Origin: Celeribacter indicus
GTDB lineage: Bacteria; Pseudomonadota; Alphaproteobacteria; Rhodobacterales; Rhodobacteraceae
Assembly: GCF_000819565.1 (NCBI RefSeq)
Contig: NZ_CP004393.1
Coordinates: 1,240,001-1,304,000, forward strand
Direction: 5' to 3'
Length of the DNA stretch: 64,000 bases
Shown piece by piece: positions 44,618-61,049 of this stretch. Each line of letters opens with the position of its first letter. The first letter of the stretch is position 1. The position numbers were made by a program, and so were the translations under genes. The notes under the pieces are model-generated. The model was given only the letters and a program-made list of their open reading frames with translations. It was not told the DNA's origin and made no database searches.

Positions 44618-44701
44618 GCCCGCGTGGTGGAATGGTAGACACAGGGGACTTAAAATCCCTAGGCTTATGCCGTGCCGGTTCGAGTCCGGCCGCGGGCACC
44701 A
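44618..44701 (+). tRNA. tRNA-Leu (anticodon TAA), CCA encoded; integration site
   Basis: The 84-nt class II tRNA has acceptor arms GCCCGCG/CGCGGGC, discriminator A and encoded CCA. The anticodon loop CTTAAAA within GGGGA/TCCCT gives TAA. The long variable arm (AGGCTTATGCCGT) is typical of leucine tRNAs, and the T arm is CCGGTTCGAGTCCGG. The anticodon-to-3' part is duplicated 16.3 kb away. The gene stays intact because the element brought that part. Confidence 0.97.
44648..44701. repeat. attL: left attachment site within tRNA-Leu
   Basis: Fifty-four bases, from the anticodon region to the encoded CCA end, are identical to 60996-61049. Sequence similarity ends abruptly on both sides. This is the usual attL position for an integrase that uses the 3' end of a tRNA gene. 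Confidence 0.93.
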
Positions 44702-44784
44702 CATTGACAAGTAAACATTTTCTGAAATCTGTTTGGTGCCGACGCTGCCATAATTTGCTACTGCGCCCACTTGTTACTCCCACT

Positions 44785-45819
44785 CTACTCATTCCTATGC
44801 GCAGCTTTCGACAAAATCTTCCGGCTCGCGCGCCTCCGATAGTAGGCTACCATTTCGGGACTCTGGTTCGTTACCGCCTGAATTTGCGCGTCGGTACAGC
44901 CTGCCTCGGCAAGCCGCACGATCGCCAGTTTTCGGAGCCCGTGGAGGCTGTATTTTTTTGCGTCTTCGCCCAGGCTCTTGCGCCATTTCTGGAACGCCGA
45001 CGCGATGCCGTCATAAGTCAGGGGTTCGGTCAAATTCCTTGCGAGGATATGGGCGCCCGATTTCGTCACGGTCTCAAGGTACGCTCGCAGCGGCACTGGA
45101 CAGTAGACGGTGAACATCTCGTCGCCCTTCTCGTCGTATACGTCCATCCAGTCGCCGTCGACCTGCGCCCATTTCATCGCGATTGCCGCGCCCGGTCTCT
45201 GACCTGTGCCGAGGATCAGCTCGGCGGTCGTTTGGACATTCCGCGGAGCGGTCGAGAGCTTGCTGACCATCCATTCAGGCCAAGGCTCGTATTCCCGTTG
45301 CCGGCCGAAAAGCCCGATCTTTGCGGCGGGATTGTCGTCCAGTGGCCAATCAAGGTCATTTTTTGCGTAGTTCCAGAGGCGACGGATTGTCTGGAGATAT
45401 TTATCAGCCTGGCGAGGCGTTCCAGACAGCTTATCGTGCGCCGCCCGGACCGCGGCGCGCGTGGTGCGGCGCACGTCCTTGTCGCCGTTCTTTTCCAGAA
45501 TATGGTCCATCGTTTTGCGATAGAACAGCTTTGTTCCCCTCGACAGTTTCCCCTGAACGCGCGGATCCGTGCGCCAAGCCTTCACGAGCGCATTCCAGGA
45601 GTATCTTGGCTCCACCTGTTGCTTCTCATGGCGCCCTGCTTCGCAGGCCCAATAAAGGCGGTCGAGTTCTTGCGCATCCCCTTGCCAATTGAGCTTGACG
45701 GTTCTCTCCCGGCGCTTGCCGCCGTCTGCCCAAGTGACCCGGTGGTATGGATCCCATGCCTTGCCGCTCCACTTCCAGTGCAGTCTCGGCTTCGCGATCC
45801 GCGGTTTCGAAGGCCTCAC
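44785..45819 (-). CDS. int: Tyrosine-type site-specific integrase
   Basis: A 344-residue phage integrase. The catalytic domain carries Arg I in LILGTGQRPGAAIAMKW, the HxxR box in LHGLRKLAIVRLAEAG and the nucleophile Tyr in MVAYYRRRASRKI. The N-terminal half (RLHWKWSGKAWDPYHRVTW) is the SAM-like arm-binding type. The predicted start is a GTG at 45819, which lies only ~20 bp from the broken tape-measure reading frame, so the native promoter seems to be lost. It should still recombine the flanking att sites if expressed. Confidence 0.93.
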   Translation of the reverse strand: MRPSKPRIAKPRLHWKWSGKAWDPYHRVTWADGGKRRERTVKLNWQGDAQELDRLYWACEAGRHEKQQVEPRYSWNALVKAWRTDPRVQGKLSRGTKLFYRKTMDHILEKNGDKDVRRTTRAAVRAAHDKLSGTPRQADKYLQTIRRLWNYAKNDLDWPLDDNPAAKIGLFGRQREYEPWPEWMVSKLSTAPRNVQTTAELILGTGQRPGAAIAMKWAQVDGDWMDVYDEKGDEMFTVYCPVPLRAYLETVTKSGAHILARNLTEPLTYDGIASAFQKWRKSLGEDAKKYSLHGLRKLAIVRLAEAGCTDAQIQAVTNQSPEMVAYYRRRASRKILSKAAHRNE

Positions 45820-45841
45820 AACGTGAACCCGTCATCTTGGG

Positions 45842-47251
45842 GTCACCGAACAGCAGAAAGCGCAGATCAAGGCGATGGCGGAGGCCGGGGATGTCGCCGG
45901 AGCACAGGCGCTCATCCTCGACGAGCTCAACCGCCAATATGCCGGACAGGCCGAAGCGCTGCGCAACCTGCCTGCCGGTCAGATCAAGGCGGCGGGCATG
46001 GCCATCGGCGATGCGACGGAGAAGGTCGGCGACGTGGTTCTGCCGGTGGTCGCGCAGATCGCGACGCATGTCGAGGATCTGGCGGTTCGCTTTCAGGCTC
46101 TTGATCCGGAAATGCAGAAGGCGATCGTCACCGGCGGCGCGCTCGCCGCAGCTGTCGGACCGCTCGCCCTGGGCTTCGGCGCGCTGGTCGCGGCCGTGGG
46201 CGTGATCGCCTCGCCGATCGGGCTGGCGGTGGCGGGCTTCACCGCGCTCGCCGGCGGGGTGGCCTATGTGGCGCTGAACTGGGACCGGCTCGTCGAGAGC
46301 TGGTCCGGCGCAGAAGGGATCTTCGGGCGGCTCAACTTTCTGGTGGCGCTGCCGGTGATCAAGCTCGTCGAGCTCGGCCGCAAGACCACGGCCGTGATCC
46401 GCCAGCTCGGCGGCTTCGGCAAGACGATGGTGTTTCTCTCCGATCTCTCGGGCGAGGTATGGGAGCGGATCGGCATGCTGGCTGCGGGCTTTGGCGCGCG
46501 GTTCGAGGCGATCGTCGGAAAGGTCAAGGCGATCTGGGCCCAGGGCGTCGCCTATCTCGCGCAGAAATGGGCGGAGTTCGTCGGAACGATCGCGCCCGCG
46601 TTCAACGCCGTGGCCGAAAAGGTCGGATCCGATCTGCGGCTGGACGCGCTGGGGGCTGCGAGCTGGGCCTCGGGGCTCGAGAATGCGGCCGCGAATGCGG
46701 GCACGCTGGCCGCCAATGCCGACCTCGCGGCGGATGCGCTGATTGCGGTGGCCAAATCCCCCCTCGCCACGCTCGAGCGGCTCAACACCACTGTGGGCGA
46801 GGTGGCCGAAACCGTCGAGGAGGATCTGGGCGAAGCCGGTGCGCTGGCCGTGAAGGAGACCACCGAGGTCACAAAGGACCTCGAGGACGTATTGAATGAT
46901 GCCGGATCGGCCGGCGGGTCTGCGGGCGGGAAAATCGCCTCCGGTCTCGCCGAGGCGATCCCGGTGGCAGAACGGCTTGCGGACACGATCGCGGAGATCG
47001 GCCGGCAGACCTTCGACAGGATGGGCGACAATCTTGCGCACGCGCTGGCCGGAGGCAATGTCGCAAGCGGCGTGCGCGGTGTGTGGAACGACTATGTCGG
47101 CGGGGCGAGCGATATCTTTGCCTCGACGCTCAGGGATGCCTTCACCGGCGGCGGCTTTGCCTCGATCGGCGCGAGCCTCTCGGGCGCCTGGGGCGGGATG
47201 ACCACGGCGCTCTCGGGGCTCTCCTCGGTCAGCTCGCTCGGCGCACTCGCC
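45842..47251 (+). pseudogene. Phage tail tape-measure protein, 5'-truncated and split by an IS (first part)
   Basis: About 470 codons of a tail-length tape-measure protein. The frame is read as VTEQQKAQIKAMAEAGDVAG in mid-protein, with a stop at 45824-45826, so the N-terminus and start codon are missing. Hydrophobic blocks (TGGALAAAVGPLALGFGALV and ASPIGLAVAGFTALAGGVAY) and long Ala-rich helices are typical. The IS256 element enters after GALA. Joining codon 47249-47251 to 48662 restores the frame exactly. Confidence 0.85.
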
Positions 47252-48652
47252 GAGCTATGCTTGAATTTGGGTGACGCGCATCATCAGGCGGCGCGGTTTT
47301 CGGTATCGTTTGTGTGTTCGATACCGTCTGTGAACTTGATTCCTTCGATAACCTTTGGCAACTGATTTCTGCCCTTGAGGCGCAGCCATTTTTTCGATGC
47401 TGCCTGAATGAGGGTGAAGACCATCAGTTTTGCGGTCTTTTGTGACAGCGCCCCTTTGGTCCTCACCGTTCGGTGCCGAACAGTGGCGAACACGCTTTCA
47501 ATCGGGTTCGAGGTGCGCAGATGGCCCCAATGCTCAGCTGGGAAGTCGAAGAATGCAAGCATCGCCTCTTCGTCCTTTGTCAGGCAGGCAACACCTTTTG
47601 GGTATTTGACGCCATACTTTTCGGAGAAAACTGCCAACGCAGCATCGGCTTCTGCGCGCGTTCCGGCGTGCTGGATGTCGTCCAGATCTGACTTGACCGC
47701 CAGGGCCATCTGCTTGGGAAAACAGTTCTGGACGTTCTTTACCTTATGCACCCAACACCGTTGGTGCTTTGTGCCTGGAAACGTTTTGTCCAGTGCGTTC
47801 CAGAACCCCATGGCTCCATCCCCAACCGCAATTTCCGGTGCGACGGACAGCCCGCGGCCTTTGATGTCGGTCAGCAACTCATGCCAGCTCTGCGCGCTCT
47901 CCCGCAGGCCGACCTGAAAGCCGATCAGCTCTTTCTTGCCCTCCGGTGTCGCGCCGATGATCACCAGCATGCATTCGGCATTTTCCTCCATCCGCGCCTG
48001 AAGATAGACGCCGTCCGCCCAGATGTAGACATAGTGGCGGGCAGACAGATCCCGCCGTGCCCAGGCATCATATTGAACCTGCCATCCGGCAGTCAGACGC
48101 GAGATGACGCTTGGCGAGAGGTTGGGTGCATCCGGCCCCATGATGGCCGACAGCGCGTCCTGGAAATCGCCCGTCGATATGCCCTTCAGATAAAGAACAG
48201 GCAGCAGCGCGTCCAAGCTGATCGAGCGGCGCGCCCATTTCGGCAGAATGTTCGAGGTAAAGCGGATTTTTTCTGCCCCATCACAGGACGCCATCCGGTC
48301 GCGCACCTTGGGCCGCTGGACATCCAGAGCACCGATCCCCGTCTGAATCTTCCGTTCAGGGCCAAATCCATGCCGCACAATCCGCTGGCGGCCATCCTCC
48401 AAGTGCTCAGCGGCAAAACTGGCGACAAACGCATCAGCTTCGGCTTTCAGCGCCTCCGCCAGCATCCGGCGCGCACCTTCCCGTGCAATTTCTGTCAATG
48501 GATCCGCTATCGATTCCGATTGGCGAAAGGGCAGGATCGTTGTATCGTTCTTCATAGGCGTATTGCTCCTCGTGAGGTTCTGGCCGGCTTCAACACCCGC
48601 CACAATACGCCGCACTTCAAATCACACCATCACCCAAATTCCCGCATAGCTC
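47252..48652. mobile_element. IS256-family insertion sequence (1401 bp)
   Basis: Terminal inverted repeats GAGCTATGCTTGAATTTGGG and GAGCTATGCGGGAATTTGGG (23 bp with 2 mismatches, reading inward) bound a single transposase gene. The 9-bp target duplication GCACTCGCC is present at 47243-47251 and 48653-48661. Element length and 8-9 bp duplications match IS256. Its GC is well below that of its host gene, so arrival looks recent. Confidence 0.92.
47284..48555 (-). CDS. IS256-family transposase (mutator type)
   Basis: A 423-residue DDE transposase. From MKNDTTILPFRQSESIADPL it runs through the DDE core: YIWADGVYLQARMEENAECM (first Asp), PEIAVGDGAMGFWNALDKTF (second Asp), CWVHKVKNVQNCFPKQ, and the Glu-bearing helix in RTSNPIESVFATVRHRT. 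All blocks are intact with no stop or frameshift, so it may be active. It is antisense to the disrupted tape-measure gene. The start at 48555 is favoured over 48615. Confidence 0.95.
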   Translation of the reverse strand: MKNDTTILPFRQSESIADPLTEIAREGARRMLAEALKAEADAFVASFAAEHLEDGRQRIVRHGFGPERKIQTGIGALDVQRPKVRDRMASCDGAEKIRFTSNILPKWARRSISLDALLPVLYLKGISTGDFQDALSAIMGPDAPNLSPSVISRLTAGWQVQYDAWARRDLSARHYVYIWADGVYLQARMEENAECMLVIIGATPEGKKELIGFQVGLRESAQSWHELLTDIKGRGLSVAPEIAVGDGAMGFWNALDKTFPGTKHQRCWVHKVKNVQNCFPKQMALAVKSDLDDIQHAGTRAEADAALAVFSEKYGVKYPKGVACLTKDEEAMLAFFDFPAEHWGHLRTSNPIESVFATVRHRTVRTKGALSQKTAKLMVFTLIQAASKKWLRLKGRNQLPKVIEGIKFTDGIEHTNDTENRAA

Positions 48653-48661
48653 GCACTCGCC

Positions 48662-49726
48662 ACGGGCATCGGCGGCGCGCTCTCGGCGGCCATGCCGCTG
48701 GTCGGCGCGGCCACGGCTCTCGTCGGTCTCGTCAAGGGCTTCAGCTCCAAGAAGCTCACCGGGGCCGGGCTCGAGTTCAGCTGGACCGGCGACGCGCTCG
48801 CCGGCGGCACCTATGAGACCTGGAAGAAGAAAAGCTGGTGGGGCCTGAAATCCTCCACCAGCACCAAGCTCAAGGCCTTCGATGAGGAGACCAATGCCGC
48901 GCTGACGGAGCAGGCGGAAGCGGTGCAAAAGGCGGTCGCTGCGGCCTACAAGGCCGCCGGCGTCGCCGTCGAGGACGGCTTCATCGAAGGCTTCCGCTAC
49001 AGCTTCGGCAAGATCTCGACGAAAGGTCTCTCCGAAGACGAGATCGAGCAGAAGGTCGCGGAGGCGTTCGCGGGCTATGGCGATGCGATCTCGGAGGCCA
49101 TCGGCGGGGTCGGCCTCGAGGTCGCGGCGACCTTTGCCCAGGTCAAGGGGGTGCTCGAGCTGGCGGGGCAGGGGTTCCGCGGCACGTTCGAGGAGATGGC
49201 CGTGGCCGCCGGGGCGGTGGCCGATCTCGTTGGGGGGCCGTCCGGGCTGGCCTCCTCGGTCGACAGCTTCGTTGCGACGTATTTCAGCGCAGCTGAGCGC
49301 TTCGAGATGGTCACCGATCAGGTGCAGTCGGTGTTCGACGATCTCGGGCTGGCGGTGCCGGGGACGCTCAAGGGCTTCCGCGAGCTCGTGATGTCGCTGG
49401 ATCTGATGACGGAAAGCGGGCGGGAGGCCTATGCCGCCCTTCTGGGCGTGTCGGATGCCTTCGCCTCCGTCAAGGCCGGGCTCGACCAGAGCTTCGACAC
49501 CTCGGGCGGCTGGTTCGTCGATGAATTCGAGGCCCGGCTCGCCCAGGTCGCGGACATGCGCGGATACGGTCGCGTCACCGAAGCCGCACAGACTGCGGGC
49601 ACGACCCAGCCCGGCCGGACTTCTCTTGGCGGCGAGGACGGGGCGGCGGTGCAGCTCCTGCAAACCATGGTGGGGATCTTCAAGGACTGGGACGAGAGCG
49701 GCTATCCCAGAGAAAGGGACTTCTGA
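48662..49726 (+). pseudogene. Tape-measure protein, C-terminal part beyond the IS
   Basis: About 354 codons in the same frame as the first part once the IS and one target copy are removed (TGIGGALSAAMPLVGAATAL). It ends with LLQTMVGIFKDWDESGYPRE. It contains an Ala/Gly helix, a Lys/Trp-rich segment (YETWKKKSWWGLKSSTSTKL) and a long helical tail. A start at 48692 (ATG) could give a truncated peptide, but no ribosome site is clear. The stop overlaps the next ATG by one base, so tail-gene coupling is kept. Confidence 0.83.
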
Positions 49727-50616
49727 TGCTTGTCTGTGAACCGCTCGGGATTGATCTCGACAGGGTCTCCGTCTCCCTGCCCGAGGACGATGCGCCGCCG
49801 TGGGAGGCGGAGACCTCCTACGGGCTCGGGGCGCAGGTCCTGCGCGGGCACCGGGTGTTTCAGAGCATGGTCGAGGACAATCTCGGGATCGATCCGCTGA
49901 CGGTGGATCCGACGAAACTCTCGGCGGACTGGCTCGAGGTGGAATATTCCAACGCCTATCGCTGCTTTGACGGGGTGATCGCGCGTCCGACCGTGGCGGA
50001 CGGCGCGCTTGCGCTGTCGGTGCGTGTCACCGAGGAGTTCGACATGTTCGCGCTCTTCGGGGTCCGTGCCGCGCGGCTGTCGCTGCGGCTGTACGATGCG
50101 GCGGACCGGCTCGTGGGCGTGCGCACCGCCGTTCTCGGCGGGCGTGTCGTCTCGAGCTGGTGGGACTGGTTCACGGTCACGCCGGCACCGCGGCGCAACA
50201 AGATCGCCTTCGACGGGCTGCCGGTCTCGGCGCGCCGCGCCGATCTCACCCTCGAGGGCGGCGGCATCCGGCTGGGCGAGGTGTTCCTTGGCAGGTCCTT
50301 CTATGTCGGAGAGGCGCAGCCGCAATCCTCCGGGCGCGCGGTGACCGCCTCGCGCTACGAGGTCAACGACTTCGGGCGCACCATCTGGGTGCAGCGTCCG
50401 ACGCGATCGGAGATGAGCTATGTGGTTGCCGCCGATCGCGCGGAGTTCGAGTCGATCGAGCCGCGCATGAGCGAGCTGGCGGGCTCGCTCGTGGTCACGG
50501 TCGGTGCGTTCGCGATTCCGTCCACCATTCACTTCGGCATCCTCGGCACCATCGACTGGGTCGAGGACAGCCCCGACGATTACCTGTTCAGCTTTACGAC
50601 GAAAGGTCTGTCCTGA
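49726..50616 (+). CDS. Phage tail/structural protein of unknown role
   Basis: A 296-residue protein with no exact family recognised. It starts at the tape-measure stop (A of TGA is A of ATG) and ends overlapping the next start in the same way, so it is an integral member of the tail operon. The segment PPWEAETSYGLGAQVLRGHR recalls short carbohydrate-binding modules in tail proteins. Beta-rich middle (SARRADLTLEGGGIRLGEVF) and C-terminus. A distal tail or baseplate role is likely from its position. Confidence 0.7.
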   Translation: MLVCEPLGIDLDRVSVSLPEDDAPPWEAETSYGLGAQVLRGHRVFQSMVEDNLGIDPLTVDPTKLSADWLEVEYSNAYRCFDGVIARPTVADGALALSVRVTEEFDMFALFGVRAARLSLRLYDAADRLVGVRTAVLGGRVVSSWWDWFTVTPAPRRNKIAFDGLPVSARRADLTLEGGGIRLGEVFLGRSFYVGEAQPQSSGRAVTASRYEVNDFGRTIWVQRPTRSEMSYVVAADRAEFESIEPRMSELAGSLVVTVGAFAIPSTIHFGILGTIDWVEDSPDDYLFSFTTKGLS

Positions 50617-51281: not shown

Positions 51282-51310
51282 CGCGCCACACCGTCTTTAC
51301 ATCCAATGCT

Positions 51311-51336
51311 GCCGCCTCCGGGCGGCGTTTCCTTTT
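51311..51336 (+). terminator. Hairpin in the tail-gene cluster
   Basis: GCCGCC-TCCG-GGCGGC (51311-51326) is followed by GTTTCCTTTT. It lies 30 bp past the collar gene and may partly end transcription before the receptor-binding gene. Confidence 0.6.
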
Positions 51337-51356
51337 ATGCGCCTCGGGAGATATCA

Positions 51357-53381
51357 ATGGCGATCACCAAAACCACTGTCGTGGGCCCGGCTGTGCTGCC
51401 CAACGACACCCGTCCCAAAAACGGCAACATCATCTTCACGCTGTCCGCCTGGGACATCGAGGACGGTCAGGCGGTCGTTATTCCCGGCTCCATCGTCGTG
51501 CCGCTTCTGAGCAATGGGGATTTCTCGGTCGGGCTGTTCTCCACCACGGCGGGCACGCGCGGCGTCGTCTATTCCGTGGCGGTGGAGCATGAGCCGTTCA
51601 CCGGGCGCAAGGTGCGCACGGACCTCGGCCAGATCGCGCTCTCGGGTCCCGGCCCGGTGCGGCTCGAGGCGCTGCTCCAGCAGCCCGCCGCGCCGCCGAC
51701 GGCGCCGGACGTGCTCGCCCAGGTGCTTGCGGCACGCGCAGCGGCCGAGGCTGCGGCGGCTCTTACCGTCGACGCCGGACAGGACGCCGACCGGGCGGAG
51801 GATGCCGCGGCCGTGTCGGAGGGCGCGGCCGCCACGGCGCAGATCGCCGCGGCGAGCACCGGCGCCTTTGCCGAGGCCACGCTCGCGGCGGCGATTTCCG
51901 CAGGCCTCGCGGCGACCGCGCAGGGGCAGGCATTCCATGCCGCCGGGGCGGATGTGGATTACATCGGCCTCTACCGCCATGACGCAGGGTCGGTGGCGAG
52001 CGAGCTGGCGCGCTATCCCACCGCGCCGGCGGTGTCGGCCGCGCAGGTGCAGGCGGATGGCGCCTTCGCGCTCGCCCGCACGCTCGCGGTGCGGCCCGCC
52101 CTCGAGGGCGCGGAGATCCTCGCGGACTTCGGGCGCGGGGCCTATGCGGTCGGGGATCGGGCGGGGCTGAAGCGCGCGGTGCGGTTCGGGGATCTGTTCC
52201 AGTTCTCGCGCGCGAGCACGGCGACGTATTACGACGCGGAGGGCGTGCTGAGGACGGCGGCGGTGGGTGTGCCGCGGTTCGACCATGACCCGGTGACGGG
52301 CGCGGCGCGGGGCGTGCTCATCGAGCCGAGCGCGACGAATTTCGAGGTAAACAGCGGGCGGATCGCCGAGAGATGGACCGTCTCCTCGGGAATCCAGCTC
52401 GCCTATGGTGCGGACGCGCCCATGGCAGGCGAGAAATGGACCGTGGTGACCACGGACGGCACCTTTGCCCAGCGGACATTCGGGAATGCCATGAGCGTCG
52501 CCCCTGGGGCGACAGCGACGGGATCCATATTCATCGACGCCGGGCAATCTGACGACATGGACGGAGAGTTCACGTTTTATGTGGGACTGTCCTCATCGTA
52601 TCGGGCACAGGCACATATCAAAATCGAGGGGGACGTTGTGTCTGTCTCCTCTGCTCCGACCGATATTTACGAACAACTCTCGACTGGCGTCGAGCGGGTT
52701 GGCCGTGGCGTCTATCGAGTGTGGATCACGGTTCGAAATGTGTCCTCTGCGGCTTCGCCCACAGTCGTCGGCCTGTGGGAGCGGGTGGCCGAGGGCGCAG
52801 GCGTGAAATCCATCGCAGTATGGGGGGCGCAGATCGAGGCCGGTCGGCTTGCGACCTCCTACATCCCGACCACCGGCGCGCCGGTCACGCGTGCCGCGGA
52901 TGATCTGATCATCCGGGCCTCGGCCTTCCCGTTCGGGATCATGCCCGAGGCGGTCTCGCTGTATTTGCGAGGAGACATGTCCTACGCGGACACTGACAGC
53001 CTCTATGAGATGACCATGTTCCGATGGGAGACATCGGCCACAAATTCACTGCTGCACCGCCTGTCCACGCTCGGGAGCGCCACCGGACAGCTCGGTGTGC
53101 GGCAGATTTCGAATGGTGGGGCTGCCCCGGTCGTGGCGTCGGTACCAGATCTGTATGGACCCGGTCGTGGCCGGCGTTTTGCGATGGCGTCCCGGCATGG
53201 TCGGAGCCTCATCAACGGCGCCGTCAATGGCACGGTCCTGACCGAGGCAAACGAAAGCGACCTGCCAAATCTGATTGGCGGCGCGCTCCGCTTCTCCACG
53301 TCCGGCGTGCTGCGCATCGCGCAATTCGCGCTCTGGCCGCGCGATATCGGCGACACCATGCTTGGGGAGATCACCGCATGA
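51357..53381 (+). CDS. Large tail-fibre/receptor-binding-type protein
   Basis: A 674-residue structural protein. An N-terminal beta module (MAITKTTVVGPAVLPNDTRP) leads to an Ala-rich coiled stalk (~115-200, AAAEAAAALTVDAGQDADRA). Next comes FQFSRASTATYYDAEGVLRT with RGVLIEPSATNFEVNSGRI, then a carbohydrate-binding-like module ending WGAQIEAGRLATSYIPTTGA, a frequent phage pattern. A LamG-like C-terminal part ends the protein. DNA from ~52340 to 53260 looks less GC-rich than the rest, consistent with mosaic exchange of the host-binding end. ATG 51357 follows GGGAGATATC. Confidence 0.75.
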   Translation: MAITKTTVVGPAVLPNDTRPKNGNIIFTLSAWDIEDGQAVVIPGSIVVPLLSNGDFSVGLFSTTAGTRGVVYSVAVEHEPFTGRKVRTDLGQIALSGPGPVRLEALLQQPAAPPTAPDVLAQVLAARAAAEAAAALTVDAGQDADRAEDAAAVSEGAAATAQIAAASTGAFAEATLAAAISAGLAATAQGQAFHAAGADVDYIGLYRHDAGSVASELARYPTAPAVSAAQVQADGAFALARTLAVRPALEGAEILADFGRGAYAVGDRAGLKRAVRFGDLFQFSRASTATYYDAEGVLRTAAVGVPRFDHDPVTGAARGVLIEPSATNFEVNSGRIAERWTVSSGIQLAYGADAPMAGEKWTVVTTDGTFAQRTFGNAMSVAPGATATGSIFIDAGQSDDMDGEFTFYVGLSSSYRAQAHIKIEGDVVSVSSAPTDIYEQLSTGVERVGRGVYRVWITVRNVSSAASPTVVGLWERVAEGAGVKSIAVWGAQIEAGRLATSYIPTTGAPVTRAADDLIIRASAFPFGIMPEAVSLYLRGDMSYADTDSLYEMTMFRWETSATNSLLHRLSTLGSATGQLGVRQISNGGAAPVVASVPDLYGPGRGRRFAMASRHGRSLINGAVNGTVLTEANESDLPNLIGGALRFSTSGVLRIAQFALWPRDIGDTMLGEITA

Positions 53382-53794
53382 ACATGATCGACGCAATCCT
53401 CTACATCGCCTCGCTCGACGATGCCGGCGCCTGGTATCGCGATCACCGGCCGGACCTGCTCGCGCGCGACGAGGCGGGCGAGATCGCCGTGCCGGAGGTC
53501 GTCGCCGGGATCGCCCGGACGCCGACGCATATCTCCGGCGATCTCGGCCTGTCCTATGTGCGCGTGACCGCGGGTCAGCTCGCCGAGCTGGTCGCCTGCC
53601 CGCAGATCACCGTGCTCGCCCGGAGGCCCTACGCGCCGGGCGTGCAGGATCAGGTCTACGCCGACCTCGCCGCCGATCCCGAGGCCTCCGCGCTCTATGA
53701 CAGCGTCTATTCCCGCGCGCCCTACGAGGTCGAGGACGGGGAGGGCGGCACCGTCACCGTCACCCCGCCCGCCCGCTTCGGGCAGATGGGGTAA
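53378..53794 (+). CDS. Phage protein of unknown function, 138 residues
   Basis: Starts inside the stop of the preceding gene (ATGA) and ends before a terminator. MIDAILYIASLDDAGAWYRD, then PEVVAGIARTPTHISGDLGL and a C-terminal acidic tail (VEDGEGGTVTVTPPARFGQM). No family is recognised. Position after a fibre gene hints at a fibre chaperone or tail assembly role, which is inferred only. Confidence 0.65.
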   Translation: MNMIDAILYIASLDDAGAWYRDHRPDLLARDEAGEIAVPEVVAGIARTPTHISGDLGLSYVRVTAGQLAELVACPQITVLARRPYAPGVQDQVYADLAADPEASALYDSVYSRAPYEVEDGEGGTVTVTPPARFGQMG

Positions 53795-53852: not shown

Positions 53853-53870
53853 CCATGACTCGAGGACACA

Positions 53871-54572
53871 ATGAGCAAGCTTGAACAAATCGCATCGACC
53901 AAGGCCTCCCTGGCGATCTCCGGAGGGTCGATCGCCTGGCCGCTGGTGGCGCCGTCGCCCGACCAGTACGCCAATTTCCTGAACCTGATCGTGATCCCCA
54001 CGATCGGCGCGGCGATTGCCCTGGTCACGCTGCTGATCAAGGGCCGCGAATGGCTGCGCGGCCGCACCGCCGCCTTCCACCGCGACGAGAGCGGCGCCAT
54101 CGGCAAGCGCGGCGTCGCCGGCGTCACGGCCGCCGCCGTCTTCGCGATCGCCGTGCCCTTTGGCATGAAATGGGAGGGCACGGTGCTCACGCCCTACTGG
54201 GACCGCTTCGCGAAGATCTGGACGGTCTGCACCGGACAGACCGGGGTCGAGATGCGCACCTACACCCTGCCGGAGTGCATGGAGATGCACGAGACGCGCA
54301 TTGCGGAGGGATATGCCCGGATGATCAGGGCCTATCCGAAGCTCCAGACCGCACCCGTCGAGGTGCAGGCGATGGCGGTGGATCTGGAATACAACGCAGG
54401 CCTGGGCACGATCCGGGCGGCGCGCAACACCAACGCCGCGTTGCGCGACGGCCGCTGGCGCGACTTCTGCAACATCCTCCCGCAATGGAACAAGAGCGGC
54501 GGGCGCTTCGTGCAGGGGTTGTTCAACCGCCGCAAGGAAGCGCAGCAGATCTGTCTGGCGGGGGTGGAATGA
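53871..54572 (+). CDS. Membrane-anchored GH24 endolysin (holin-like N-terminus)
   Basis: A 233-residue muramidase that would cut peptidoglycan glycan strands. The N-terminal ~75 residues contain a hydrophobic helix (FLNLIVIPTIGAAIALVTLL), then basic residues (KGREWLRG). A second Ala/Val-rich helix (GVAGVTAAAVFAIAVPFGM) precedes the GH24 domain. The active Glu is in KWEGTVLTPYWDR, with Asp 9 residues on, then TVCTGQTG. The C-terminal RNTNAALRDGRWRDFCNILP with NKSGGRFVQGLFNRRKEA fits GH24. No separate holin gene was found, so the N-terminus may combine anchoring with holin-like activity, or act as a signal-arrest element. Confidence 0.85.
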   Translation: MSKLEQIASTKASLAISGGSIAWPLVAPSPDQYANFLNLIVIPTIGAAIALVTLLIKGREWLRGRTAAFHRDESGAIGKRGVAGVTAAAVFAIAVPFGMKWEGTVLTPYWDRFAKIWTVCTGQTGVEMRTYTLPECMEMHETRIAEGYARMIRAYPKLQTAPVEVQAMAVDLEYNAGLGTIRAARNTNAALRDGRWRDFCNILPQWNKSGGRFVQGLFNRRKEAQQICLAGVE

Positions 54573-54871
54573 TCGGCGGGCGGTGGGCGGTGCGCCTGGC
54601 GCTCGCCGCGGCGCTGGCGGCCGCGCTGCTCGGTCTGTGGGGGTGGGCGCAGGCCACGCGGGCCAAGGCGCTCGAGGCCAGGCTGGAGGCGGCCGAGGCC
54701 GCGATCGCAGGCTATGAGGAGGCGGCGCGGATCCGGCGCAAGACCGACCGCGTCCTCGAGCAGCTCCGCGGTGAGGCTGCGCAGCTCGACACCTATCTCG
54801 ACACCATGGAGGGCGGCGATGCGCCTTTATCTGATTTTCTGTCTGACGCTGCTCGCCGGCTGTGGCCATGA
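54569..54871 (+). CDS. Rz-like inner-membrane spanin subunit
   Basis: A 100-residue protein with a single N-terminal helix (AVRLALAAALAAALLGLWGW) and an Ala/Glu/Arg-rich coiled coil (KALEARLEAAEAAIAGYEEA). This is the i-spanin layout for outer-membrane disruption at lysis. It overlaps the endolysin stop (ATGA). Its 3' end contains the Rz1-like gene in another frame, the classic nested Rz/Rz1 arrangement. The identification rests on layout and context; sequence identity is low. Confidence 0.75.
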   Translation: MIGGRWAVRLALAAALAAALLGLWGWAQATRAKALEARLEAAEAAIAGYEEAARIRRKTDRVLEQLRGEAAQLDTYLDTMEGGDAPLSDFLSDAARRLWP

Positions 54872-55362: not shown

Positions 55363-55632
55363 ATGGAAGCTCAGGTAATCGCTTTCCTCATCCTGTGTCC
55401 CTTCGCACTGGCCTTTGTCTATGCGGCCGTTCACGAGATCCGACGCTACAAATCCGAAGGCCGCGCGACCTATGGCCTCGTTTACAACGAGGAGACCGGG
55501 ACCACCCACGTCACCGGAATTGCCGAGGGCGAGGAGGGGTATGATCCCGAGAGCTACGACCCGAACGATTACAGCGATCCGGACATCAGCGATGGGTCCG
55601 ACGATGACAGATCGAGGGATACCTCCAAATGA
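55363..55632 (+). CDS. Small membrane protein with long acidic tail
   Basis: An 89-residue protein. MEAQVIAFLILCPFALAFVY forms one N-terminal helix; then a basic hinge (HEIRRYKSEGRATYG); then an acidic tail (GYDPESYDPNDYSDPDISDG) repeating the xYD/DP pattern. No family is recognised. It overlaps the DUF805 gene by 4 bp (ATGA), so the two proteins probably work together. GC and codon use look lower than in the tail genes. The start has AAAGGAGCATC upstream. Confidence 0.62.
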   Translation: MEAQVIAFLILCPFALAFVYAAVHEIRRYKSEGRATYGLVYNEETGTTHVTGIAEGEEGYDPESYDPNDYSDPDISDGSDDDRSRDTSK

Positions 55633-56108
55633 CTTTTCCGGATGCGATCACGCAGTGTTTTCGCAAATACGCAGCTTTCGGAGGCCGGGCGTCCCGCTCC
55701 GAATATTGGTGGTATACCCTGTTCATCTTGCTCGTCATGGTGGCGCTGAATGTGATCGTCATGCTTCTTTTCCGCCAGGCACGCCTGGCGCAGCTGCTTA
55801 CGCAGGTGTTTTCGCTCGCAACCTTTCTGCCCACGCTGGCTGTGAGCTGGCGGCGGATGCATGACAGCGGGCGTCCGGGCTATCTGGTGATGGTCTGGGC
55901 GCTTGGCACGTTTCTGGGCCTGCTGGTGATTGCAGTCACTGCGGCGATAATGGTGCCAGATACGAGCAATCCAGAGGCTGTCCAGACCTTGCGCACAATT
56001 GGTGTCGCCACTTTCGCCTTTTGCCTTGTCGTGACGGCCATCATGATCTGGTGGATGACACGGCGGAGCGATCCGGCGGTCAATCGTTTTGGTCCTCCAT
56101 CCACGTAA
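55629..56108 (+). CDS. DUF805 membrane protein
   Basis: A 159-residue inner-membrane protein with the DUF805 start CFRKYAAFGGRASRSEYWWY, followed by four hydrophobic helices and SWRRMHDSGRPGYLVMVWAL, the signature loop. DUF805 function is not established. It is coupled to the small acidic protein by a 4-bp overlap. It is a common passenger on prophages and islands. Confidence 0.86.
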   Translation: MTFPDAITQCFRKYAAFGGRASRSEYWWYTLFILLVMVALNVIVMLLFRQARLAQLLTQVFSLATFLPTLAVSWRRMHDSGRPGYLVMVWALGTFLGLLVIAVTAAIMVPDTSNPEAVQTLRTIGVATFAFCLVVTAIMIWWMTRRSDPAVNRFGPPST

Positions 56109-56267
56109 TCAGGCGGTCTCGTGCGGCGTGCGGCGCTGGTGGGGAGGTGAGGGACGGGGGGCGGCTTACGCTCGTGCTGCCGGGAAGGGCGGGAAGCCGA
56201 CATTCGCTGCGTCCTGGACGAACGGCAGCGGTGCGCAGGAAATGGACATCGACAATGTGGCGACCAG

Positions 56268-56459
56268 AGATCGTTTTGGAAGGCGCATCAGGTTCACGCC
56301 ATGGAGACGCGTGAGGCAAACTACAAGTGGCGCAACCGCATCGAGATCATGTTCGTCCGCCTCAAGGACTGGAAGCGCGTTCCGGCCCGATATGAACGAT
56401 GTCCAAAGGTCTTCCTTTCGGCCATCGCCCTCGCAGCTCTCGTCATTTACTGGTCATGA
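56268..56459 (+). pseudogene. IS5-type transposase, C-terminal remnant
   Basis: From 56268 the frame reads RSFWKAHQVHA, then METREANYKWRNRIEIMFVR with LKDWKRVPARYERCPKVFLS and AIALAALVIYWS at the stop (56457-56459). The R-x-R-IE-x-MF-x-RLKDW-R-x-x-x-RY pattern is the C-terminal DDE glutamate region of IS5-family transposases. The rest of the element is missing, so it is a dead fragment. Confidence 0.75.
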
Positions 56460-56647
56460 ACCTTTGTAAGTCGCGCTCCCCCGGTCACCGTCCGCTATGG
56501 GCTGACACCGGTCACCCGACGCGCCTGGCACCAAGGTCGGCTCAGGGCCGGGAGCGACTGCGGGACCTTCTAGGCGGCTATCTCCTGCCGCCGCGCTGCC
56601 GCATGTCCGCTCCGAGTCCATTCGAACCGATCGCGGGCCAGCGGACG

Positions 56648-57856
56648 TCAAGCTTCGCTCCGTTCCGGGCGGTTTTCGCGAAGCCGGAGCGCGATCAGCC
56701 CGACCAGTGGACACCACGCAGTCATGTCGAAGGTCGTGGCGATGCTCGTGACATCCGCTAGCCAGCCGAAGGCGGCCGATGCCAACCCGCCGACCCCGAA
56801 GGCCGTGCCGTAGAACAATCCCGAAACCACGCCGATGCGCGACGGCGCCAATCCCTGGGCATGCACCACGATGGCCGGGAAGGCCGAGGCGATGATCGCA
56901 GACGCCAAGATGGCCGCTGCCACGGCGGGGAAAAGACCCAGGTGCGGGAAGGCCAAAGCAAAGGGCACCGCGCCCCAGAACGAGAACGCGATCACCCGGC
57001 GCGTGCCGATCCGGTCGCTGACGGTCCCCCCGATCAGGCCTCCGCCCGCCGTGGCCGCGTGGAAGCAGAAGAGCACGACGAGGCCGGATGCGACCGGAAC
57101 GTCGAATTCCGTCTCGAGGTAGAAGACGAGGTAGCTTCCGAAACAGGCGAGGTAGACGTATTTCGCGCAGACAAGCGCGAACAAGACGCCCAACTGCCCC
57201 GTCGGCGCGGCCTCCGACATCGGAGCCGTTTGCGCGATGGTCGTCACGGGCGCCATGTTACCCGTCTCGGAAGGCGAGGCGTCGGCGCTCCACAGAAACA
57301 CCGCCAAAAGCACGCCCACGGCCGCAAGCGCCGAAAACCAGGCGATCGAGCCCTGTCCATTGGGCAGCACGACCAAGGCCGTCACCAAGGGACCTGCCAT
57401 CGACCCCAGGCTTCCGCCAAGCTGGAAGAGCGACTGCCCCCAGCCGAGCTTCTCCCGCGCCCAGCGACGGGCCAGCCGGGCGGCTTCGGGGTGGAAGATG
57501 GCCGAGCCGAAGCCAAGGAGCACGCTGGCGATCAGCAGCCATGCATAGCTGTCCGCCATTCCGAGTGTGAAGATGCCCGACCCGCTCAGGCTCATGCCCA
57601 GCATGAGGCTCCAGCGCGGCGCATGGCGGTCGGTGAAGGCACCGACCAGCGGCTGAAAAACCGACGCCGTGAACTGGTAGACAAGGGTCAGAAGGCCGAG
57701 CTGGGAAAAGTCCAAGGCAAGGTCCGTGTGGATCAATGGGTAGCTTGCGATCAGAAGCGCCTGGAGCAGATCGTTTAGAAAATGGGACGTGGACACGGCA
57801 AGCAAGGGCAGCTGCCGTGCCCGTGGCGATAGATATCTCGCGGCCTGATCGGACAT
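56648..57856 (-). CDS. MFS transporter, Fsr (fosmidomycin resistance)-like
   Basis: A 402-residue exporter with 12 hydrophobic segments. AVSTSHFLNDLLQALLIASY is the Fsr-family first helix, FTDRHAPRWSLMLGMSLSGS the loop 2-3 motif, and LGFGSAIFHPEAARLARRWA is very typical of Fsr homologues. QFTASVFQPLVGAFTD also fits. The substrate is not shown by sequence. It is divergent from the AraC regulator (98-bp gap), its likely controller. Confidence 0.88.
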   Translation of the reverse strand: MSDQAARYLSPRARQLPLLAVSTSHFLNDLLQALLIASYPLIHTDLALDFSQLGLLTLVYQFTASVFQPLVGAFTDRHAPRWSLMLGMSLSGSGIFTLGMADSYAWLLIASVLLGFGSAIFHPEAARLARRWAREKLGWGQSLFQLGGSLGSMAGPLVTALVVLPNGQGSIAWFSALAAVGVLLAVFLWSADASPSETGNMAPVTTIAQTAPMSEAAPTGQLGVLFALVCAKYVYLACFGSYLVFYLETEFDVPVASGLVVLFCFHAATAGGGLIGGTVSDRIGTRRVIAFSFWGAVPFALAFPHLGLFPAVAAAILASAIIASAFPAIVVHAQGLAPSRIGVVSGLFYGTAFGVGGLASAAFGWLADVTSIATTFDMTAWCPLVGLIALRLRENRPERSEA

Positions 57857-57954
57857 TCTTTGCTTTCAACTCTATTTTGTGTCCGCTCATGTTTCTCCTT
57901 CCGGCCTCACTCTGATATCGATACCGGGACAGATTCTATCGAGACTGGGCCATT

Positions 57955-58713
57955 ATGTTGAATTCCGTCGGTACAGAAGACATCATTGGCCTCGGGCGCC
58001 GATATCCGGCCGGCAGCCATTTGGAGCCGCATCGGCACGACCGCTCTCAACTGCTGTACGGGCTGACGGGGACCGTCGTCGTCACTGGCACTGCGGGACG
58101 TTGGATGATGCCGCCGGACAGCGCGTTGTGGATTCCCGCCCAGGTGCTGCACGAGGTCGACATGGTCGGAGAGGTTCACATGCGAAGCCTCTATCTCAGG
58201 CCCGACTTGCCTCTTCAGATGCCGCGGAATTGCGCCGTCCTCTCGGTCAGCCCGCTTCCGAGAGCGCTTCTCGACGAGATCGCCGGCGGCGCGGCGGAGG
58301 CGACGCAAAAGCGCAAAATGTTGGAGAAATTGGTCCTCGTCGAGATCGCGAGCCGTCCGATCCTGCCTCTTTCGTTACCCCTTCCCGAGGCGGGGCCTAT
58401 GCGCGACCTCTGCCAGGCATTCAGTGCCGCCCCGGATGCTCATGCCAAGCTGGACGAGTGGTGCGTCGCCCTGAACGTGAGCCGGCGGACATTCACCCGT
58501 GCCTTCCGGACCGCGATCGGCCTCAGCTTCGTCGAATGGCGAACCCGCGCCTGCGTCCTGGCGGCGATCAGCCACCTTGCCGAAGGTCAGACGGTCACCC
58601 GCATCGCCTTCGACCTCGGCTACGACAGCTCAGCGTCTTTCACGGCCATGTTCCGGCGCTCCACTGGCAGCCCACCCTCCCGGTATCGACATGGCCCAGA
58701 TGATCCCGAGTAA
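57955..58713 (+). CDS. AraC-family regulator with N-terminal cupin
   Basis: A 252-residue regulator. The cupin sensor is SHLEPHRHDRSQLLYGLTGT. The C-terminal pair of HTH motifs is VALNVSRRTFTRAFRTAIGL and TRIAFDLGYDSSASFTAMFR, followed by STGSPPSRYR. This layout matches regulators that sit divergently beside MFS pumps. An effector small molecule is implied but unknown. Confidence 0.9.
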   Translation: MLNSVGTEDIIGLGRRYPAGSHLEPHRHDRSQLLYGLTGTVVVTGTAGRWMMPPDSALWIPAQVLHEVDMVGEVHMRSLYLRPDLPLQMPRNCAVLSVSPLPRALLDEIAGGAAEATQKRKMLEKLVLVEIASRPILPLSLPLPEAGPMRDLCQAFSAAPDAHAKLDEWCVALNVSRRTFTRAFRTAIGLSFVEWRTRACVLAAISHLAEGQTVTRIAFDLGYDSSASFTAMFRRSTGSPPSRYRHGPDDPE

Positions 58714-58989
58714 CGAGAAGGGTGGATGACCGTTCTGTCCCGCAAAGTGTGAGTTCGAAGCTGCCTCGATCTCGCGACCGCAGCGAACGGCCGGTTCGGC
58801 GCGCAGCGCTGCGGCATCCGGAGAAACGGTGAACAGCGGCTTTGGGCCGGTCGCTTCCTTTGCGCAGCAAGCGGGGCATGAGCGAGGTGCTAAATGCGCT
58901 TCTGCTATGAATAGCTATCCTGTGAATTAGGATTTGCAATCCGCCGCGGCCTCGGCCCGTAAGCCCCGGCGAAAATTCTTCCGCTTCCT

Positions 58990-60426
58990 TCATCTTTCCC
59001 ATGTTGTTTCCATCGTCGCGAAAGTGACCTCGCGCGGTGGCTGCGCAGGGGCGCGATAGGGTATTCCCGCCGCATGAAACTGTATGGCATGCCGCTCTAT
59101 CAGTTCAGAAATGCCCAGCGAGGAGAGAAGCGATCTCGCCTCTGGATCATTTCCGACATTCATCATGACAAGCGTGCCTGAAACATTGGGTTCTGCCGAT
59201 TCAAGCGGAGGCTTCACGCGCCAGTGGGGGCGGATCCGCGCGAGGTTTCCCGTATAAAAATAGTTGCTCCCCAGAAGCGTGATGTCGTGAGCCGCCGGGG
59301 ATGCCTGTTCGATGATCCTCGCGAGATGTTCCATGTCCAGTGCATTACCCGTTGTCCCGCTCAGCCTGTTGGCTGCCATGCCGGTGAGTGTCAGCGCGGC
59401 GATCGCAGCCGACACCAGAAGGATGGCCGTTTCCGAGCGCGGCCTGGCCTTTTCCATGCTCCAGATAAACATGGCGACGCTGACGGGGACATACGATGGC
59501 AGAAGCCAGCGTGCCTGGAAGGACTGCGTCTTGAATAGGAAGGCGAGGAAACCGCAGAGCAATATCCCCAGAAGGCCGGCGCCGAACAACCATCTCGTTG
59601 CCTTTTCCACGTCATATGACCGCTTTTGAGCGGGGCGGTCGGTCATGAATTTGAACGACAGGATGGCGACGGGAAAAACCAGGGCCAGGAAACTCTGTTC
59701 CAAAAACGGATAAAGCCCTGCGAAGCTGCTGGTCGCTTCCGAATAGAGCTTATGACTGGCCGCAAGTGAAAGGTCGGGATGGGTGATGGACCAGGAATAG
59801 GGGGCGGCCAAAAGAACCGCTGCAACAGCAGCAGAAATGAACAGGTTGCGGCACCATATCGCGGATCGGTAGTCCCTGATGCAGAGCGCGCTCAACCCGA
59901 GCGTGATCGAAAATATCCAGAAATTATACTTGCTGAGCCCACCTGCGGCAATGGCGACGCCGAGGGCCGCCCAGTGCCACTTCCGAGGATCGTCGATGAG
60001 TCTCGCGAGTAGGTTCAAATAGACCGACATTGTCGCCAGTAAGGCGATGCTGTGTGTCCCCGCGCGCTGGCTTTCCCAGAAGATGTTGGGCAAGAGGAAC
60101 GCGCCCAGTGTTCCGAACAGGGCGATCCGGTTCGGGACGAGACGTTTCATACCGTCGAACAGCGCGATGTAGAATGTGCCAAGGAAAAGGCTTTTGACAA
60201 TTACCAGCGCAAAGGTATTCGTTCCGAAAAGCGCGAAACTTATGGTCTGCGCCCAGTTGTAGAGAGGGAGTTGCGGGCCATAGCCGAGATGGAATTCCCC
60301 CGCCATGAGGATCATTTCTGCCTCGTCGCGCTCCAGATTGCCGCCGACGATACTCCGTATTGCCGTGTGCGCGACGAAATAAAGAATAACCAGACTGTTA
60401 AAGTGCTTGACGACATAATCTGTCAT
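58990..60426 (-). CDS. GT39-type membrane glycosyltransferase
   Basis: A 478-residue polytopic protein (about 11-12 helices) of the protein mannosyltransferase/ArnT group, which moves a sugar from a polyprenyl-phosphate donor to a cell-surface acceptor. NLERDEAEMILMAGEFHLGY carries the conserved Asp-Glu, and GPQLPLYNWAQ the acceptor loop; WESQRAGTHSIALL follows. The periplasmic C-terminal domain ends RAPAQPPREVTFATMETTWE. DNA looks markedly less GC-rich than the chromosome, so it is foreign. Prophage-borne surface sugar transferases can change host receptor properties; this role here is inferred. Confidence 0.85.
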   Translation of the reverse strand: MTDYVVKHFNSLVILYFVAHTAIRSIVGGNLERDEAEMILMAGEFHLGYGPQLPLYNWAQTISFALFGTNTFALVIVKSLFLGTFYIALFDGMKRLVPNRIALFGTLGAFLLPNIFWESQRAGTHSIALLATMSVYLNLLARLIDDPRKWHWAALGVAIAAGGLSKYNFWIFSITLGLSALCIRDYRSAIWCRNLFISAAVAAVLLAAPYSWSITHPDLSLAASHKLYSEATSSFAGLYPFLEQSFLALVFPVAILSFKFMTDRPAQKRSYDVEKATRWLFGAGLLGILLCGFLAFLFKTQSFQARWLLPSYVPVSVAMFIWSMEKARPRSETAILLVSAAIAALTLTGMAANRLSGTTGNALDMEHLARIIEQASPAAHDITLLGSNYFYTGNLARIRPHWRVKPPLESAEPNVSGTLVMMNVGNDPEARSLLSSLGISELIERHAIQFHAAGIPYRAPAQPPREVTFATMETTWER

Positions 60427-60995
60427 TGGGCTTCCCAGAATAATGCGGGCTCAGACAAATCGTCCGATGCTGGCAAAATGAAAATCGCTGGTTGGCAAAT
60501 TTTGGTGCTGCCTTGCAAGCAGCCTCGCCATAAATGAAAATTGTTTCCCTTGTGCTGGGGTCCCGCACACACATACGTGCTACGCAGGCCGTTCTCAATT
60601 CTCCTGAAATCTTCCGCGCAAGTTCGCTGCCGCCGCCGTCATTGAATTTTTCGAGTGTTAGATAAATCGAAACAAAAACGCAATGGCCAGCCAGCGCGGT
60701 TCGGACATCTGCCGTCCTGCCGCCTCATCTCTCTCCGCTGGGCGGCTCGGAGAGCAGCCTGTTGTGGGCATTGATCACTGTCACCCGTTCCACCGCTTCC
60801 GTCACGGAGAGCACACGCCGTGCTGGCGGGCGGGTGCGCCCGACGTCGCTCGCCGCGATTGAACCAAGCATAGGCAAGAGGTCGATGCCGATCCCAACCC
60901 TTTAGGGGCAAGGTGCTCCCAAATCCTCATTTGTTCCCGTTTTGTCCATGGGCGTGATCATATTTATAGTATTGATTTTAATAAATAAATTTAAA
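60427..60995. other. Right end of the element before attR
   Basis: About 570 bp without a confident gene. It falls from mixed composition to very AT-rich (60950-60995, TTTATTAATAAAT type), as is common next to attachment sites. One small minus-strand frame (60725-60871, 48 codons; MLGSIAASDVGRT...VERVTVINAHNRLLSE) looks partly protein-like but has no clear ribosome site. Confidence 0.45.
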
Positions 60996-61049
60996 ACTTA
61001 AAATCCCTAGGCTTATGCCGTGCCGGTTCGAGTCCGGCCGCGGGCACCA
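60996..61049. repeat. attR: duplicate of the tRNA-Leu 3' end
   Basis: Exactly repeats 44648-44701, including the encoded CCA. It has no 5' half of a tRNA and cannot be expressed as one. The host sequence resumes with GTTCTTTTCC, the T-run that probably ended the original tRNA transcript. Confidence 0.93.

What the first reader, a model, noticed from the sequence alone, without database searches (positions are those of the whole stretch)
44618..61049. 16.4-kb element in tRNA-Leu(TAA) with an exact 54-bp att duplication
The sequence shows that the 3' 54 bp of tRNA-Leu at 44648-44701 recur exactly at 60996-61049, with an integrase next to the left copy. Everything between is foreign to the flanking chromosome: phage tail and lysis genes, IS elements, a pump with regulator, and a GT39 enzyme. 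Tyrosine integrases are known to use tRNA 3' ends. The element is short of head genes, so it has turned from phage to island, perhaps still mobile through its intact integrase.
Basis: partly seen in the sequence, partly recalled or inferred. Interest (0 to 1): 0.8.

Follow-up and report, generated by a model that had tools for sequence, protein, structure and literature searches.

The report
Broken prophage locked in tRNA-Leu
A virus that once inserted itself into a leucine tRNA gene of a marine bacterium has lost most of its genes, apparently including the one needed to cut itself out, and now carries a few passenger genes; this is an ordinary kind of element, unusually well documented because a more complete relative sits in the same tRNA gene of a sister species.

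Summary
The last 54 bp of tRNA-Leu(UAA) (44648-44701) recur exactly at 60996-61049, with a full-length tyrosine integrase beside the left copy. Comparison shows what it is. Against it, about 21 kb is missing here, from an excisionase-like gene into the tape-measure gene. Only what looks like its last 8 codons remain, fused to the tape-measure remnant. That ORF abuts the integrase in 19 of 20 related loci. So this is a defective prophage, probably locked in place rather than mobile, further broken by an IS256-family insertion (9-bp target duplication). Cargo (MFS pump with AraC regulator, GT39 enzyme) lies at the attR end. The predicted empty site fails for the right flank: metG follows this tRNA in 13 of 13 other Celeribacter loci checked, but lies 2.3 Mb away here, so the right flank is rearranged. 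Novelty is low; the candidate excisionase family is the most useful by-product.

The parts
44618..44701 (+). tRNA-Leu(UAA), complete; carries attL in its 3' part
   Evidence: ARAGORN
44648..44701 (+). attL-side core repeat (54 bp, anticodon to CCA)
   Evidence: exact repeat; longest repeat 54 versus at most 17 in 50 shuffles
44785..45819 (-). tyrosine integrase, 344 aa, GTG start; stop codon 83 bp from the tRNA 3' end, convergent
   Evidence: Pfam PF00589, phrog_1; motif positions aligned; sister of the G014 integrase, support 100/98; gap 83 bp, 73-111 bp in 18 relatives
45816..45842 (-). putative last 8 codons and stop (PQDDGFTL*) of a deleted excisionase-like gene, stop overlapping the integrase start
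   Evidence: compared with PKDQDFEL* of the G014 ORF (4 of 8 identical, same overlap with the integrase start)
45843..47251 (+). tape-measure gene, internal part (about the first 180 residues missing), up to the IS
   Evidence: phrog_1272 and others; 65% identical to G014 TMP; junction by DNA alignment
47252..48652 (-). IS256-family insertion sequence with 443-aa transposase (47284-48615); 9-bp target duplication at 47243-47251 and 48653-48661
   Evidence: NF033543; inverted repeats; flanks read; 4 full-length copies at 100% (rounded) in the genome
48653..49726 (+). tape-measure gene, C-terminal part
   Evidence: phrog_25966; 73% identical to G014
49726..50616 (+). phage protein of unknown function next to tape measure
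   Evidence: phrog_6278; 66% identical in G014 prophage and viral contig L173
50610..51281 (+). tail collar/fibre protein
   Evidence: PF07484, phrog_523
51306..53381 (+). tail protein, 691 aa
   Evidence: phrog_5939
53378..53794 (+). hypothetical protein (138 aa)
   Evidence: no Pfam or PHROG match
53871..54572 (+). endolysin, phage lysozyme
   Evidence: PF00959, phrog_7
54569..54871 (+). Rz-like spanin
   Evidence: phrog_214, E 0.00089; 56% identical over 80 residues in G014
55363..56108 (+). two small genes: hypothetical (55363-55632) and DUF805 membrane protein (55629-56108)
   Evidence: PF05656 for the second
56321..56460 (+). C-terminal remnant of an IS5-like transposase
   Evidence: multicopy match in many Rhodobacteraceae genomes and matching ORF in L205; family name recalled
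56648..57856 (-). MFS transporter, FSR-like
   Evidence: PF07690; 83% identical to an Aureimonas altamirensis MFS, further relatives named FSR family
57955..58713 (+). AraC-family regulator, divergent from the pump
   Evidence: PF12833, PF02311
58990..60426 (-). GT39 / ArnT-like membrane glycosyltransferase
   Evidence: PF13231; nearest relative 61-62% in C. ethanolicus
60996..61049 (+). attR: displaced 3' end of the tRNA gene (no 5' part)

Best explanation
It is a defective temperate siphovirus-type prophage integrated at tRNA-Leu(UAA). A tyrosine integrase recombined the phage attP with the anticodon side of the tRNA gene; the phage DNA restored the tRNA, and the original 3' end was displaced to attR (class shown by comparison; individual steps inferred). 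Later one deletion, or several, of about 21 kb (measured on the relative) removed everything from the excisionase-like gene upstream of the integrase through repressor, packaging, head and early tail genes into the tape-measure gene. That left integrase, tail-tip and lysis genes and both att sites. An IS256-family element hopped into the tape-measure gene. Cargo genes at the attR end (MFS pump with AraC regulator, GT39) are retained. Because the integrase is intact but its conserved excisionase-like partner is gone, the element is predicted to be locked in place (inferred) and to behave as a stable genomic island.
For: Exact 54-bp tRNA repeat. In G014 the same tRNA-Leu(TAA), in the same rhomboid/IMPase/LysR context, carries an integrase 68.6% identical, sister on the tree at 100/98. 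On the same contig follow repressor, terminase small and large, portal, protease, capsid, connectors, tail proteins and TMP, and homologues of this element's TMP pieces, 49726 gene, collar start, lysozyme and Rz gene in the same order. A tRNA 3' copy lies near metG in G014 (L150), and the sequence after it aligns with that after the uninterrupted tRNA in G001 and G004. At the deletion junction the integrase-side sequence reads as the end of the excisionase-like ORF and the other side as TMP from about residue 180. The excisionase-like ORF abuts the integrase in 19 of 20 homologous loci and gave no match in 44000-61100. IS target duplication read.
Against: The excisionase assignment is weak by profile (phrog_66 E 0.0024 for the G014 copy; at E <= 0.01, 11 of 16 members match, best 9.9e-05; Pfam HTH_17 in 10 of 16 at E <= 0.1, none for the G014 copy); no test of function exists. 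The 8-codon tail matches in only 4 of 8 residues, so the junction is not exact to the base. The G014 prophage spans two contigs, so its attR is joined by inference. Shared proteins are 41-73% identical, so the deletion is inferred from a relative, not a direct ancestor. The right flank matches no empty site. The G014 empty-site alignment holds for 2 of 13 other genus loci only; the rest show no similarity just behind the tRNA. The cargo has no counterpart in the held part of the G014 prophage, so it could be a later addition.
Confidence: 0.9

Rival explanations
1. A still mobile genomic island: the intact integrase and intact att sites let it excise and re-insert on its own.
For: Integrase ORF full length with the motif positions of its relatives; att repeats exact. 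Defective prophages can excise: KplE1 (10.2 kb, E. coli argW) excises when TorI, its directionality factor, is expressed from a plasmid (PMC2951348, passages seen).
Against: The excisionase-like ORF found beside the integrase in 19 of 20 relatives is deleted and no homologue was found in the genome (negative without control). The region upstream of the integrase is tape-measure sequence from about 45843 on, so any native promoter further up is gone. KplE1 carries its own torI (recalled).
Confidence: 0.1
2. A composite: the phage remnant ends near 54.9 kb and the cargo (DUF805, pump/regulator, GT39) came in separately, by IS activity or as a second tandem element whose inner att was lost.
For: The G014 prophage has a nuclease and a cold-shock gene at its right end instead. 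An IS5-like remnant sits between. The pump is 83% identical to one from Aureimonas. GT39's nearest homologue is beside tRNA-Cys in G014. G+C falls to 0.53-0.65 in 55-61 kb.
Against: Cargo genes of differing origin at the attR end of a prophage are usual (recalled). Only one att pair was found.
Confidence: 0.35
3. The right-hand repeat no longer marks the original element end: the rearrangement that moved metG 2.3 Mb away also cut or joined DNA next to it.
For: metG is near this tRNA in 13 of 13 other loci checked and beyond the prophage in G014, but at C1:3624654 here; an isochorismatase gene lacking its 5' part stands about 425 bp right of attR.
Against: The repeat has the extent expected of a displaced tRNA 3' end; in G014 the copy begins one base earlier at the same anticodon-side place.
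Confidence: 0.08
4. A gene transfer agent or tailocin module rather than a prophage remnant.
For: Tail and lysis genes without head genes; the lysozyme has a weak, below cut-off match to a GTA endolysin model (24.8 versus 315 bits).
Against: Integrase plus att pair; tape measure truncated and split by an IS; the fuller relative encodes terminase, portal and capsid in the same element.
Confidence: 0.01

Closest known systems
   Same: same tRNA gene and chromosomal left context; sister integrase (68.6%); homologous tape measure, 49726 gene, collar start, lysozyme and Rz gene in the same order
   Different: G014 keeps excisionase-like ORF, repressor, packaging, head and connector genes; different right-end cargo; right flank is metG
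tDNA genomic islands as defined by Islander (PMC4383910; passages seen)
   Same: regenerated tRNA plus displaced 3' fragment mark the ends; tyrosine integrase; anticodon-side (A) type att, judged from the G014 relative
   Different: nothing essential
KplE1 (CPS-53), defective prophage in argW of E. coli K-12 (PMC2951348; passages seen)
   Same: defective remnant with integrase beside the tRNA and duplicated core
   Different: KplE1 has its excisionase TorI; this element has lost the corresponding ORF
Integrases of Microcystis phages Mae-JY02, Mel-JY03 and Pseudanabaena phage Pan4
   Same: 57-59% identical integrase over 99% of its length
   Different: none of the three is among the 9 phage records matched by the 49726 tail-module protein, which suggests module exchange; the rest of their genomes was not compared

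Membership tests
Genomic island in a tRNA gene (tDNA island) | intact regenerated tRNA at one end and a displaced fragment of it at the other | tested here: met
Genomic island in a tRNA gene (tDNA island) | tyrosine integrase gene inside the interval | tested here: met
Genomic island in a tRNA gene (tDNA island) | empty site in relatives joins the two flanks (supporting, not required by the Islander principle) | tested here: not met
   this genome's right flank is not found at the tRNA in any of 13 relatives, where metG follows; for the related G014 prophage the comparison holds against G001 and G004, 2 of 13
Temperate siphovirus-type prophage, complete | terminase, portal, capsid, repressor present | tested here: not met
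   no such match among the ORFs of 44785-54871 scanned; present in G014
Defective prophage (remnant) | phage late genes in phage order, with deletion and insertion damage, inside att sites | tested here: met
Excisable defective prophage (KplE1 type) | integrase plus its directionality factor | tested here: not met
   excisionase-like ORF reduced to about 8 codons; none found elsewhere in the genome (no positive control); the ORF's role is itself inferred
Excisable defective prophage (KplE1 type) | excision observed | not testable with these tools
   needs PCR or reads
Integrase clade that uses class II tRNA genes | integrase 3' end faces the 3' end of a Leu or Tyr tRNA | tested here: met
   this locus and 18 of 20 relatives, gaps 73-111 bp in 18 of 18
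Gene transfer agent | conserved head-to-tail gene cluster without integrase and att (definition recalled) | tested here: not met

The most novel reading that the evidence does not exclude
The small (63-73 residues in the 16 aligned) helix-turn-helix-like ORF that overlaps the start of these integrases is an unrecognised excision-directing factor of a Rhodobacteraceae integrase clade that works on class II tRNA genes (Leu UAA, CAA, UAG; Tyr GUA), and deleting it together with the lysis-lysogeny switch is a route by which such prophages become permanently fixed islands.
Probability: 0.55. Interest if true: 0.4.

Novelty: new member of a known kind. Interest (0 to 1): 0.27.

Why it matters
As an element it is ordinary. 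It is useful because the steps from phage to fixed island can be read against a fuller relative in the same tRNA gene: loss of the excision gene and everything up to the tape measure, an IS hit, cargo retained. It also points to a small, conserved ORF family as the likely excisionase of these integrases. [quoted passage not shown] whether those prophages carry it was not tested here.

Tried and rejected
Empty-site search for 44701 joined to 61050: none of the 14 Celeribacter loci fetched (of 19 other genus genomes; G002, G006, G008, G009 and G010 were not fetched at this place) has the right flank beside the tRNA. The manC and fab-block neighbourhoods were compared instead and show that this part of the chromosome is rearranged, not how. 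A single inversion with breakpoints at the tRNA/metG and acetyl-CoA hydrolase ends was considered; polA, about 13-14 kb from fabI in G007, lies at 757 kb here, neither near metG (3624 kb) nor near the fab block (1310 kb), so that alone does not explain it if the G007 order is ancestral; not pursued.

tblastx of the relatives' right flanks against this locus was swamped by chance high-G+C matches and was replaced by protein searches.

Gene transfer agent, tailocin and defence-island readings were rejected; PADLOC gave no match for the 9 element proteins submitted, of 15 in the element (the tenth protein submitted lies elsewhere in the genome and had weak PDC-M37B matches).

Phage records: the 691-aa tail protein, the 49726 protein and the integrase match phage records at below 60% identity only, so no phage record found is the parent.

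Structure prediction of the excisionase-like family was submitted and had not finished in five collecting calls; no fold evidence is claimed. A profile search of PDB sequences gave only two hits, at E 0.35 and 0.46, not used. From alignment A1 three of the 19 homologues (L161, L167, L172) were left out because the ORF finder gave them long 5' extensions.

The first attempts at some calls failed on coordinates and were repeated correctly (11, 12, 13, 70); the fourth item was left out.
Full report
Source. The window is G000:C1:1240001-1304000 of a 4,969,388-bp genome in 6 contigs. The best named match to the rhomboid gene left of the tRNA is Celeribacter ethanolicus NH195 (75%), and the genus is therefore Celeribacter by inference. 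The six contigs and the size fit my recollection of C. indicus P73, but no call names it. G014 is taken to be C. ethanolicus NH195, because its contig C21 has the same length (62,811) as the named contig, and a GT39 protein on a 62,811-bp contig is listed as C. ethanolicus.

Observation. tRNA-Leu(TAA) is at 44618-44701, and its last 54 bp recur exactly at 60996-61049. The tRNA has three matches in the genome at E <= 0.001: itself, this copy, and another tRNA-Leu at 82%. The longest exact repeat in the 17-kb stretch is 54; in 50 single-base shuffles the longest was 17. The integrase (44785-45819, -) has its stop 83 bp from the tRNA 3' end.

Integrase clade. Homologues at E <= 1e-40 were found in 25 of 394 family genomes including this one (drawn evenly, nearly one per genus; G014 is not among the matches listed). 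Loci were returned for 19 of the 24 others. With the G014 locus (L145) that makes 20 related loci, of which 18 have a class II tRNA beside the integrase: Leu TAA in 2, CAA in 12, TAG in 3, Tyr GTA in 1. The other two (L154, L169) have none in the stretch held; in G087 (L154) a tRNA-Leu(CAA) lies about 4.8 kb further on. In 18 of 18 the integrase and tRNA converge with a gap of 73-111 bp. On a tree of 21 integrases G000 and G014 are sisters (100/98). The target label, 'none' counted as a label, needs 6 changes where 4 is the minimum, and 0 of 200 shuffles were as low. The Leu TAA users as such are not shown to be one clade (2 changes; 48 of 500 shuffles as low). The R, K, HxxR and Y positions are conserved; the second histidine is lacking in this branch and present in L169-L172 (motif names recalled).

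The fuller relative. In G014 the left context (LysR, IMPase, rhomboid, tRNA-Leu) is syntenic with the window back to about 19 kb. Behind the tRNA come the sister integrase, a 71-aa ORF overlapping its start, a repressor with HTH and S24 domains, terminase small and large subunits, portal, head protease, capsid, connectors, tail proteins and a 1000-aa tape measure. Then follow homologues of the window's tail and lysis genes in the same order, and the contig ends about 1.5 kb after the lysozyme gene. Contig C2 has near its end a 58-bp copy of the tRNA 3' part, about 970 bp from metG (L150). The sequence behind it aligns over about 585 of 600 bp tested with the sequence behind the uninterrupted tRNA in G001 and G004; the other 11 relatives show no similarity there. 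That is an empty-site comparison for this prophage family. The tRNA and the displaced copy in G014 differ by one T-stem pair (A-T against G-C) and share a 30-bp core around the anticodon. This places the crossover on the anticodon side, the 'A' class of Islander (PMC4383910, passages seen). In the window the copies are identical and say nothing on this.

What is missing here. In G014 about 20.8 kb lie between the integrase start and the place in the tape measure where the window's homology begins (coordinates). In the window these are about 23 bp apart. Reading 45842-45816 on the minus strand gives PQDDGFTL*, set against the last residues PKDQDFEL* of the G014 ORF (4 of 8 identical), with the stop overlapping the integrase start in both; on the other side tape-measure homology starts at about residue 180. 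The excisionase-like ORF was found abutting the integrase in 19 of 20 loci (not in L168) and nowhere in 44000-61100. It is a coherent family (16 of the 19 aligned, invariant A15 A16 F26 V30 G33 P36 W48). Support for the function is moderate: PHROG 'excisionase and transcriptional regulator' phrog_66 in 11 of 16 at E <= 0.01 (best 9.9e-05), Pfam HTH_17 in 10 of 16 at E <= 0.1 (best 2.6e-05), no PDB sequence match below E 0.35, and its position. The genome search for a second copy was empty, without a positive control.

Further damage. The IS256-family element at 47252-48652 has 24-bp inverted repeats and a 9-bp direct repeat GCACTCGCC on both sides (read). It is one of four full-length copies at 100% (rounded) in the genome, two on the chromosome and two on contig C4, so it is probably recent. 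A 140-bp piece at 56321-56460 matches a multicopy transposase C-terminus.

Cargo. The MFS pump is 83% identical to an Aureimonas altamirensis protein; many of the 120 relatives listed (of 3101) are named FSR family. It stands back to back with an AraC regulator. GT39 is 62% identical to a gene of G014 that lies between tRNA-Cys and the orthologue of window 19051-19791, about 29 kb left of the tRNA-Leu; next best in the genus is 41%. None of the cargo proteins matched the held part of the G014 prophage at E <= 1e-5.

Right flank. In 13 of 13 other Celeribacter loci checked (L136-L144, L146-L149) metG lies to the right of this tRNA, from 0.1 to 8.4 kb away, and it lies beyond the prophage in G014. 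Here the metG block is at C1:3616-3627 kb, 2.3 Mb off in contig coordinates; about 2 kb past metG, behind an EamA transporter gene, stand a TniB-like ATPase gene and a gene with a weak rve match (20.8 bits, below its cut-off). Right of attR stand an isochorismatase gene lacking its 5' part, manC, and then a block (acetyl-CoA hydrolase to fabI and beyond) that is syntenic in other genomes at other places. So the left boundary is secure, and the right boundary rests on the repeat itself.

Literature. Rhodobacteraceae prophages in tRNA genes including Leu are known (PMC8224337, passages seen). PMC6699656 was seen in passages only and treats C. indicus genome-wide. Searches in print listed papers; in the listings and passages I saw no description of this locus; supplements were not available. 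Williams 2002 on sublocation is known to me from its citation and recall only.

Verdict. A defective, probably locked prophage in tRNA-Leu(UAA): a new member of a known kind.

Noticed in passing
L190 (G000:C1:3616001-3636000) 11053-17863: About 2 kb past the displaced metG, behind an EamA transporter gene, stand a TniB-like ATPase gene, a 765-aa protein with a weak rve match and another AAA ATPase; possibly linked to the rearrangement that separated metG from tRNA-Leu.
   Followed up: partly
window 61475-61768: Isochorismatase gene lacking its 5' part, between attR and manC.
   Followed up: partly
G014:C21:891-3824 (L229): A second tyrosine integrase stands beside tRNA-Cys(GCA), with a GT39 gene on the other side of that tRNA; in the window the tRNA-Cys at 18922-18995 has no GT39 beside it, while the tRNA-Leu element does.
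   Followed up: partly
G014 tRNA-Leu (L145 8447-8533) and L150 9967-10024: The two att copies differ by a compensated T-stem pair, so the phage probably supplied a variant but pairing 3' part of the tRNA.
   Followed up: partly
H30-H32 (phage records PP395635, ON968455, PP395636): Integrases of three phages recorded on freshwater cyanobacteria are 57-59% identical to this integrase; the other 14 phage records matched are below 30%.
   Followed up: no
G006:C7:44786-44844: Another partial tRNA-Leu 3' copy (78%) in a 2.0-Mb, 85% complete genome of the genus; possibly the trace of another element.
   Followed up: no
L137 (G015), about 8.4 kb between tRNA-Leu and metG: Extra DNA at the same tRNA in another species, so this site may be a hot spot in the genus.
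   Followed up: no
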